Shown here one piece after another: positions 18,967-21,900 of a stretch of 64,000 nucleotides of DNA (position 1 is its first letter; every line of letters begins with the position of its first letter). This DNA comes from Colletotrichum lupini (taxonomy: Eukaryota; Ascomycota; Sordariomycetes; Glomerellales; Glomerellaceae). The notes beneath the pieces were generated by a model. That model searched no databases and was not told the DNA's origin. It worked only from the letters and a program-made list of their open reading frames with translations. The position numbers and the translations under genes are program-made. Location: positions 3,534,001-3,598,000 of the forward strand of contig NC_064672.1 in assembly GCF_023278565.1 (NCBI RefSeq), in the 5' to 3' direction.

Positions 18967-21900
18967 CTACTTCATGCAGATGACGTGAGCGCTGGTGATT
19001 GAGGCAACTGAGATGGAAGTACCCGTATCATTGCGGACGGTGATGACGGGGGTAACCACAAGCTGCACGCGCCAATGCTCAGCCTGGAGAAGCTGCGGAC
19101 CAATGTTGGGCGCGATTCCAACCATGGTTCCAGTGTTGAAGCGCGCTCCCGTATCGGGAAAGCGGAACTCGAAAGTCCATCGCGAGGTAAACATCTTCGC
19201 CGAGATGGACCATGCCTTCTCGCACATCTGGCAAAGCGCCTCGTCGGCCCTCTCGAGGTCGGGACCGCCTTCAGACTCGGGCAGCAAGAGCGGCGAGAGC
19301 ATCTCGCGGAGCTCAGCCTGGAAGTACTCGATCCGGTGGTTGCGATAGGCGTCGTAGCGCTCATGGTTGATGCAAGAGTTAACCAGGGACGCAACTCGAT
19401 CAATACACAGCTGAAGAGCACCACCTTGACCCGCTGTTTAAGTTAGTCATATTCTTGCATTGAGAGACGTGCCAGATACAACTTACCAGGGAGATTGTTC
19501 ATCTCGTGGCGAATCTCACGCAGCTGGCGATCAGCATCAACAGAGAAACCCTCCCAGGCCTCGAAAGTGAAGATCCGATTGATAAGAAGATCGATCATGG
19601 TACGAGAGATGAGACAAGCACGGCTCATGGGGTCGTTCATGTGCTGACGAATGTAAGACCACGCCTGCTGCTCGCTGAAGGGAGCATAGAGCTTCATCAT
19701 GTAACGAAGGATGGCAACATCGTTGGAGCGCGACAGAATGCTAAGGTCAACGTTCGAGGCAAACTGGAGCACCTAGCCCCGCGCGAGACCCCAAACGCCC
19801 TCAAGAGCACGAGCATAGCGCTCATTGTCGCCGCCTTCATCCTCACTGAAGCCGTTGCCGGGAGCCAATGGACTGGTGACTGCATGGCTGGGGCCATGGC
19901 CACCCTGGCCAAAGGGACCGGGACTGAAAGCTCCTTGCTGACGGATATTAGCCGTATGGTGGCTGTTACCGGACGAGTTGGGGCCGTGGCTACGAGTGCG
20001 CTGTGGAACCATCGAGTAGTCGTTGCTGTAGCCCATGTGGCTCGAGCCCATGCCGTACTGGGAACCATGGGAGATTTGACGTCCCGAAGGAACCAGAGGA
20101 GGCGGGCGAGGAAAGCCACCACCGGGTCCTTCAAAGTTGCCGTAATGACCAGCGGAGCGAGTAGTCGGGCTGCGGAAAGGAGTGCTGCCTCCGTTGAAGT
20201 TGTGGCGAGAACCAGCATTGGATCCTGAGCCGTAGCTCATGTTGTAGGACGTATCATTGTGGAAGCCACTGTTGTCTGCGTTGCCATACATGCCCGGGTG
20301 GAACTCAGGAGCATTGGGACGGAACGAGCCGCGGTGGCCCATGGCAGTGCCAGGGCGGGACGGCATGTTGAACCGGCCTCGATGGTTACTGGGTCCCTCA
20401 AAGCCATTGGGCTGCTGATATCCGCCGCTGAAACCGTTCTGAATGTCTCGAGTTTGCGAGTAAGAACCGGTATATTGAGTAGGGGTGCCGCTAGACGCGC
20501 GCGTCCAACCCGCGGAAGATATGGTGCGGTTGTCACCAGACCGACGGCCAGGGCCATACATGCCCGGGAAAGAAGTGGAAGGGGCATTATGAGCAGGTGG
20601 AAAGCCCGGAATGTTCTGCTGGTGGTAGAACGGCTGCAGAGCATTGTCCAAGGTGGGGATCATCTCATGTGATTCCGAACCAGGGGCACGACGTGCATCC
20701 TGAGACTGCTGAAGCCGCTTAGCCGACTGAGGGTGGTTCTCCTTCTCAAGCGCGGCGATGCTCTCGGTACTGAGGATGGCAATGGCCTTGGAAGAGTTCT
20801 CACGCTCTCCGTGCATCCAGCGGGAGCTAGGGCGGTCCATGAAGTCCTTGAGAGTCTGTTGTGGTGCCATTAGCAATTTCCCATAAACGAGAATCATGGA
20901 AACGAACCTGAAGCAACTCGGCAACGATCTGCTCTCTGTCTCCATTCTCTTCATCATTGCGAGGATCGAGGCGGGCCAAGAACTCGAGAACCGTGTTCTT
21001 GTGGTTCTCCTGCTCCACGTGGTAGCGCGCAAGACGATCCTCCAACTCCTCGTACTTGCGATGAATCTCAGCAACATCGCGCTTGAGCTGCTCACGTTCC
21101 TCGGAAATGATGCTAGCCTCCAGTTTATTGGAACAAAGAACCTTGTCGTTGTACTCGAGATCGATTTTGATATCTGCGACCTCATTGACAGCCTGGCGAA
21201 GAATGTCGTTAACCTTTTGCGAGTACACCTGGAGGCCATCGCAAAGGTCGTTGGCAATGTTGGCCGGAATGCCAGGAGTGCGGCGGATCGCCTGCTGAGT
21301 GGTCATAATTCCGGCTTGAACTTGCCGAGCGGGAATCCAAGCGGGCTTTCATCTCAAAGTCAGCAATTTGGTCCGGCGCAACAAACAAAAGCCAAAACAG
21401 TGAGAACCAAAGAAGAAAGGCGAAGATGGAAACTGGGAGATGAGAAGCCTGACTCAAGGTGAAGGAAGGCCCCAATCGAGGCACAATGTGACTTACATGG
21501 TCTCTGGCCAGCTCGGAGCGGCGACTCTCCCGGAGAGGGCCAGCCAAAGGTCCGTCAATATGACAGTGAGTAGCCATCTTCGCGATAATCTTGTTCGTCT
21601 TTGTGAGTTCAGAAGTTGGCTTGAGCTTTGTTTTGTCCTCGACGGGGGCAGGATGCTGTTGAATTCGTCGAGTGTCGTTGTTCAAGGAACCCGGGGTATG
21701 ATGACCGGGAGTCTTGGCGCTGGGGGTACCTTCGAAGTCACGAATAGATGTAGAAGACGGCAGCGGGCCAGATCGATGTCCAAGGGTGTTTGGCTGTACT
21801 GCAGAACGCCCAGTTGGAGTTGCCAATGCCGTTCTCTCAGAGGGAAATGATGCCTTTCCTGTTGAGAAGTGCGGCGGATGCTGACTGATAGTACGACTTG

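What the first reader, a model, noticed from the sequence alone, without database searches (positions are those of the whole stretch)
19750..19800. Single in-frame UAG in a long gene, placed in a hairpin loop: candidate A-to-I edited stop codon
Seen: the minus-strand frame of 989 codons is broken once, by TAG at 19775-19773, with 737 codons before and 250 after in the same phase. Downstream codons have normal host codon bias and include a correctly phased intron at 19,434-19,486. The codon sits where TGG (Trp) would fit by one base. The mRNA arms GGGGC and GCUCC pair around the loop UAGGU. Established: Sordariomycetes (Fusarium graminearum, Neurospora) perform ADAR-independent A-to-I mRNA editing in sexual development, with a strong preference for U before the A, enrichment in hairpin loops, and known UAG-to-UGG repair of premature stops (for example PUK1). 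Inference: this gene makes a 737-residue form in hyphae and a 988-residue form with an extra C-terminal domain in fruiting bodies. A C-to-T change at CA on the plus strand (RIP-like), a plain nonsense allele or a base error would look the same at DNA level.
Basis: partly seen in the sequence, partly recalled or inferred. Interest (0 to 1): 0.9.

Follow-up and report, generated by a model that had tools for sequence, protein, structure and literature searches.

The report
Genus-wide conserved, probably edited stop codon
A fungal gene of plant-anthracnose fungi has a stop signal in its middle that relatives across the genus share, while the protein part beyond it is well conserved, so the stop is probably rewritten in the RNA message rather than being a mistake.

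Summary
On the minus strand a spliced gene (ATG 22189, three introns) has 737 codons, TAG at 19775-19773, 250 more in-phase codons, then a terminal TAG. The genome is Colletotrichum lupini by protein match. It is not an error or rare allele. Of 17 Colletotrichum-type proteins found, 13 (12 named species, one unnamed) end at the same residue; 3 are annotated past the site, two by an implausible 24-nt 'intron' that implies TAG; 1 is uninformative. Outgroup proteins run on uninterrupted, with Phe at the site in 7 of 8 (the eighth cannot be registered). The part beyond the stop is better conserved than the part before it, including the 24 codons up to a shared Met. No credible intron skips the stop. 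The A lies in a hairpin whose loop CUAGGUG resembles an anticodon loop with A at position 34, the known fungal A-to-I substrate. The genome holds an Ame1-type DUF726 gene with the Met-Val signature. Best explanation: UAG-to-UGG editing, about 0.72. No RNA data were available; C. lupini is considered asexual. New member of a known kind.

The parts
18967..22189 (-). Whole gene, ATG to terminal TAG (18969-18967); 737 codons + TAG + 250 codons + TAG
   Evidence: upstream part is P0002, C. lupini BDP67DRAFT_598796, 99.9% identical
21497..22189 (-). Exon 1 (mostly low-confidence, probably disordered N-terminal part)
   Evidence: model of the V. dahliae relative
21346..21496 (-). Intron 1, 151 nt, GTAAGT..AAG
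20908..21345 (-). Exon 2 (long helix / coiled coil)
   Evidence: model of the V. dahliae relative
20856..20907 (-). Intron 2, 52 nt
19487..20855 (-). Exon 3 (low-complexity linker, then the first part of the C-terminal domain's first helix, the TAG, and the start of the downstream part)
19773..19775 (-). In-frame TAG, the proposed UAG-to-UGG editing site (A at 19774)
   Evidence: same place as the end of 13 Colletotrichum-type database proteins
19766..19780 (-). Hairpin GGGGC-UAGGU-GCUCC; with the C-G closing pair open, a 4-bp stem with a 7-nt loop CUAGGUG
19434..19486 (-). Intron 3, 53 nt, in phase downstream of the TAG
18967..19433 (-). Exon 4 (rest of the downstream domain, with terminal TAG)
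18970..19772 (-). Conserved downstream part, 250 codons in exons 3 and 4: predicted helical bundle, then low-confidence beta strands

Best explanation
The TAG is a premature stop that is fixed across Colletotrichum and corrected in the mRNA by ADAT-type A-to-I editing. The Tad2-Tad3 heterodimer, directed by an Ame1-type cofactor, deaminates the A of UAG in an anticodon-like hairpin loop, so the ribosome reads UGG (Trp). Unedited mRNA gives a 737-residue protein that stops inside the first helix of the C-terminal domain; edited mRNA gives a 988-residue protein with the whole domain. Shown: the stop, its place shared across the genus, conservation of the downstream part, absence of a plausible bypass intron, the hairpin, and an Ame1-type gene. 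Inferred: that relatives' stops are TAG, the deamination, the Trp, when it happens, and what the protein does.
For: Stop shared: 13 of 17 Colletotrichum-type hits end exactly at GLARG/GLARS; 3 are annotated past the site (P0004, P0012, P0014); 1 (P0016) diverges earlier and says nothing. Downstream part alive: 6 Colletotrichum proteins are this part annotated alone, one of them from C. godetiae, whose upstream half is also annotated alone. It is more conserved than the upstream part in 4 of 4 species where both were compared by BLASTP with C. lupini: C. godetiae 96 vs 86%, C. orchidophilum 96 vs 77, C. chlorophyti 84 vs 51, C. plurivorum 75 vs 47. Continuity: the 24 residues between the stop and a Met shared by the Colletotrichum sequences are conserved (BLOSUM 54 to 71 against shuffle means of -16 to -19, 0 of 20000 shuffles as good, in 3 of 3 species pairs), and the 17 residues before the stop are the most conserved of the last 45 upstream. 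Outgroup chains run on: the last 17 upstream residues place best, ungapped, directly before a Phe in 7 of 8 outgroup proteins; in the V. dahliae model that Phe (547) lies inside helix 530-551. TAG implied in two further species: the fused models of P0012 and P0014 lack exactly eight codons, which fits a 24-nt GT..AG removal ending in TAG. Editing signature: U at -1, G at +1, A in a hairpin loop, and a 7-nt loop CUAGGUG with C-U-A where tRNA has 32-33-34. Papers give U at -1, hairpin loops, G/A at +1 and UAG-to-UGG correction as the fungal pattern (PMC11156358 parts 1-2 of 3; PMC4817773 passages). Machinery: of three DUF726 genes, the one at G000 C1:3970177-3971282 has Met-Val where the C7 copy has Arg-Asn and the C6 copy Gln-Asp; Met-Val is reported as essential for Ame1 (PMC11087585 section 17).
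Against: No transcript evidence at all. The hairpin is only in the top 1.7% of TAGs here, its shuffle z-score at 21 nt is only -1.2, and its conservation could not be tested. Outgroups have Phe, not Trp. The +3 base is U, whereas A/G is preferred. Met-Val lies 30/29 residues before the Ser here, 31/30 in FgAme1; the Ser-Asp and Ser-His spacings (58, 98) fix the register but are shared by the C7 copy, so they do not single out the C1 gene. C. lupini is considered asexual, and in-planta RNA-seq of C. [quoted passage not shown] Tad2 and Tad3 were not identified with certainty.
Confidence: 0.72

Rival explanations
1. Programmed translational readthrough: the ribosome decodes UAG with a near-cognate tRNA in a fraction of rounds, helped by the hairpin, with no change in the RNA.
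For: It explains the conserved stop and conserved downstream domain equally well; leaky UAG codons are known in plant viruses (titles in the reference list shown).
Against: The efficient fungal readthrough context is UGA CU, and replacing UGA by UAG lowered it (PMC4207609 passages); here it is UAG GUG. The gene's own terminal stop is also TAG, so a general suppressor is unlikely. It does not explain the anticodon-like loop.
Confidence: 0.13
2. Two cistrons: the downstream domain is started separately at a downstream AUG by reinitiation, leaky scanning or its own promoter.
For: Automatic annotation models it this way in the 6 Colletotrichum proteins (5 start at a Met at the 13th codon after the stop, 1 at the 25th). 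A Met at the 25th codon is present in 8 of 8 Colletotrichum sequences of the alignment that reach it.
Against: The Met at the 13th codon is Leu in C. lupini and Thr in C. chlorophyti. The one at the 25th is also in Stachybotrys, which has no stop there. The 24 codons before it are conserved as protein. The stop falls inside a helix of the V. dahliae model. An out-of-phase ATG precedes that Met in C. lupini.
Confidence: 0.07
3. Alternative splicing removes the stop, as reported for an intron of FgBUD14 (PMC11156358 part 2).
For: Some gene models fuse the halves with an intron (P0004, P0012, P0014).
Against: Of 7 in-frame GT..AG stretches of 40-160 nt spanning the stop, none matches GTAAGT at more than 3 of 6 donor bases; only one has a branch-like motif and it would delete highly conserved residues. 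The 24-nt version is far below the gene's own 52-151 nt introns. Longer introns were not tested.
Confidence: 0.03
4. Decay: a nonsense mutation fixed in the genus ancestor, with the downstream part now a relic.
For: A G-to-A change in a TGG (C-to-T at CpA on the other strand) is a common, RIP-like mutation.
Against: 75-96% identity downstream in 9 Colletotrichum sequences, no further stop or frameshift in C. lupini once spliced, normal codon use.
Confidence: 0.03
5. Base-calling error or a strain allele.
For: None beyond the single base needed.
Against: A second C. lupini protein record (one residue different) and 12 further proteins end at the same codon.
Confidence: 0.01

Closest known systems
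PUK1-type premature-stop correction (Fusarium graminearum PUK1 and 69 other genes; N. crassa NCU03242)
   Same: In-frame UAG in a conserved gene, U before the edited A, preference for hairpin loops, automatic gene models with false introns (PMC4817773 passages; PMC11156358 parts 1-2)
   Different: Different gene, no known domain; editing not yet seen; shared across Colletotrichum, for which the papers found here report no editing; host species considered asexual
CHE1 of F. graminearum (FG3G21220)
   Same: Conserved UAG in related species of one genus, mis-annotated in the same three ways (early end, late start, small false intron), A in a predicted hairpin loop (PMC11169179 parts 1-2 of 5)
   Different: CHE1 is a 310-aa zinc-finger protein edited in hyphae; this is a 988-codon protein with a long helix and no zinc finger found; timing unknown
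FgTad2-FgTad3-Ame1 editing complex
   Same: Genome has a DUF726 gene with the Met-Val signature
   Different: Expression and binding untested; one-residue difference in spacing
UGA-CU readthrough isoforms in fungi
   Same: Conserved extension behind a stop
   Different: UAG GUG, not UGA CU; the extension is a whole domain, not a short peroxisome signal (PMC4207609 passages)

Membership tests
PUK1-type A-to-I corrected premature stop | In-frame UAG that an A-to-G change turns into a sense codon, U at -1 | tested here: met
PUK1-type A-to-I corrected premature stop | Downstream part under selection as coding sequence | tested here: met
   protein conservation and codon use; dN/dS not possible without relatives' DNA
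PUK1-type A-to-I corrected premature stop | Edited A in a predicted hairpin loop | tested here: met
   15 of 888 TAGs as stable
PUK1-type A-to-I corrected premature stop | Stop shared by orthologs, some orthologs uninterrupted | tested here: met
   Stop in 13 of 17 Colletotrichum-type hits; 8 of 8 outgroup proteins uninterrupted; stop codon of relatives only inferred
PUK1-type A-to-I corrected premature stop | Sense orthologs carry Trp at the site | tested here: inconclusive
   7 of 8 outgroup proteins carry Phe, the eighth cannot be registered; in the 3 Colletotrichum models annotated past the site the codon is skipped, so nothing can be read
PUK1-type A-to-I corrected premature stop | A-to-G in cDNA, stage-dependent | not testable with these tools
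   no RNA reads available
PUK1-type A-to-I corrected premature stop | Editing-competent Ame1 in the genome (Met-Val at the Tad3 contact) | tested here: met
   L006; by sequence signature only, spacing to the Ser differs by one residue
CHE1 ortholog | About 310 aa with three C2H2 zinc fingers behind the stop | tested here: not met
   737 + 250 residues; no Pfam family in the downstream part, one sub-threshold coiled-coil hit upstream
UGA-CU fungal readthrough | UGA followed by CU | tested here: not met
   UAG GUG
Spliced-out stop (FgBUD14-like) | Plausible in-frame intron of 40-160 nt around the stop | tested here: not met

The most novel reading that the evidence does not exclude
The stop is a long-lived developmental switch kept by selection in the whole genus Colletotrichum and used outside sex as well: in a clonal species such as C. 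lupini the full-length protein can persist only if the UAG is edited in vegetative or infection stages, which would mean Ame1-type mRNA editing is not confined to fruiting bodies in this lineage.
Probability: 0.2. Interest if true: 0.8.

Novelty: new member of a known kind. Interest (0 to 1): 0.6.

Why it matters
It gives a concrete, single-base test of whether Colletotrichum, a large genus of plant pathogens in which the one screen found here reported no RNA editing (PMC4194422), uses A-to-I mRNA editing. It would also show a premature stop preserved across a whole genus. Because C. lupini is considered asexual and sex is described as rare in the genus (PMC11645255), the site tests whether such editing depends on sex. 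If the reading is right, automatic gene models misjudge this gene in 22 of 23 Colletotrichum-type database proteins recovered (13 end at the stop, 3 are joined by false introns, 6 start late); the remaining one, P0016, cannot be judged at the site.

Full report
Identity. The window lies at G000 C1:3534001-3598000 of a 63.44-Mb, 12-contig assembly. The upstream 737 residues match C. lupini BDP67DRAFT_598796 at 99.9% over the full length, one residue apart, and 63.4 Mb is the upper end of C. lupini assembly sizes (PMC11645255 passages). Taxonomy places C. lupini in Glomerellales, Sordariomycetes.

Observation. The terminal stop of the same gene is TAG too.

Place of the stop in relatives. A search with residues 230-737 of the upstream part returned 18 proteins. 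Seventeen are of Colletotrichum type and one is Verticillium. Thirteen of the 17 end in GLARG (9) or GLARS (4), exactly at the residue before the TAG: lupini, godetiae, incanum, cereale, navitas, sublineola, destructivum, falcatum, caudatum, siamense, truncatum, spinosum and one unnamed. Three (orchidophilum, chlorophyti, plurivorum) are annotated past the region. One (spaethianum, P0016) departs into another reading after about residue 510 and is uninformative. In chlorophyti and plurivorum the fused model reads EGVLRFAS where C. lupini reads EGV WGLARG stop VLQFAS, that is, 24 nt are missing. In C. lupini the corresponding 24 nt start with GT and end with the AG of the TAG, so the stop in those two species is most likely TAG as well.

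Conservation beyond the stop. The 250-residue downstream part, searched on its own, found 9 proteins, 6 of them Colletotrichum genes annotated to start late. A search with residues 715-980 of the C. chlorophyti protein found 11, among them Verticillium, Sodiomyces, Plectosphaerella and Stachybotrys proteins with no interruption. Against C. lupini the downstream part is 96, 96, 84 and 75% identical in godetiae, orchidophilum, chlorophyti and plurivorum, the upstream part 86, 77, 51 and 47%. The 24 residues between the stop and the Met shared by Colletotrichum sequences are conserved in 3 of 3 species pairs that can be compared (8 to 13 of 24 identical; 0 of 20000 shuffles as similar). The 17 residues just before the stop are nearly invariant in the 13 proteins, except position -10 (Phe, Tyr or Leu) and -1 (Gly or Ser). 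Placed without gaps, these 17 residues fit best directly before a Phe in 7 of 8 outgroup proteins (two V. dahliae, two V. albo-atrum, two Sodiomyces, one Plectosphaerella); for Stachybotrys the placement fails. In the model of the V. dahliae protein (weak overall, mean pLDDT 56) this Phe is residue 547 in helix 530-551. The stop therefore seems to cut one helix of one domain, and termination there is unlikely to have been the only outcome over the history of the genus.

Mechanism. The A of the UAG lies in a hairpin loop in 5 of 5 fold windows. With the closing C-G pair open, the loop is CUAGGUG on a 4-bp stem, in which C, U and A stand where an anticodon loop has positions 32, 33 and 34 (numbering recalled). 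Tad2-Tad3 deaminates A34 of tRNA and, with Ame1, mRNA in fungal sexual tissue, with U at -1, hairpin loops and frequent UAG-to-UGG correction (PMC11156358 parts 1-2; PMC11087585 passages and section 17). The statistic is moderate: 15 of 888 TAGs do as well. The Gly/Ser alternation before the stop would keep the stem if Ser is AGC (G-U to A-U), which is a prediction and not a result. Of three DUF726 genes in the genome, the one on C1 has Met-Val where the C7 copy has Arg-Asn and the C6 copy Gln-Asp; the paper reports Lys-Asn as ancestral and Met-Val as essential for binding Tad3. The Ser-Asp and Ser-His spacings of the C1 gene equal those of FgAme1 (58 and 98) but the C7 copy shares them, so they only fix the register; the Met-Val spacing differs by one.

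Alternatives. Readthrough is not excluded but the context is not the known leaky one. Separate initiation is disfavoured by the conserved 24 codons and by the shared Met being present in Stachybotrys without a stop. Splicing has no credible sites between 40 and 160 nt. Error, allele and decay do not fit.

Results against the reading. No RNA data. The in-planta RNA-seq screen of C. graminicola concluded that no RNA editing occurs, with thresholds of more than 30 reads and at least 25% (PMC4194422 passages); its data were infection-related, so it says nothing on perithecia but speaks against strong editing during infection. C. lupini is described as asexual and presumably clonal, though rare sex is not ruled out (PMC11645255, listing and passages). 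Either editing happens outside sex, or sex was lost recently or is rare, or the mechanism is another one.

Function. No family over its cut-off, no solved relative and no fold match was found. By the models of relatives the protein has a low-confidence N-terminus, a long helix, a low-complexity linker and a C-terminal domain of helices followed by low-confidence strands. Its role is unknown; I expect the long form to be the ancestral, active one, because the outgroup genes are uninterrupted.

Verdict. A real premature stop, shared across the genus, most likely corrected by A-to-I editing: a new member of the PUK1/CHE1 kind in a genus where the papers searched here do not report it.

Noticed in passing
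52500-64000: AT-rich block (GC 0.31, TpA/ApT 1.38) with a RIP-like signature that nevertheless holds one open 1415-codon frame reading, by eye, like a Copia-type retrotransposon polyprotein at 57275-61522 (+).
   Followed up: no
L006 (G000 C1:3970177-3971282), L005 (C7), L007 (C6): Three DUF726 genes; only the C1 copy has the Met-Val pair reported as essential for Ame1-Tad3 contact.
   Followed up: partly
L007 near 2066-2068: A 'TAG inside' a DUF726 match is the 3' end of an ordinary intron, not a recoded stop.
   Followed up: yes
P0024 and P0029 (database proteins): Relatives of this gene carry names such as 'protein phosphatase' (P0024) and 'Poly(A) RNA polymerase cid13' (P0029); the family scans of other members gave no support for either name; these two were not scanned themselves.
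   Followed up: no
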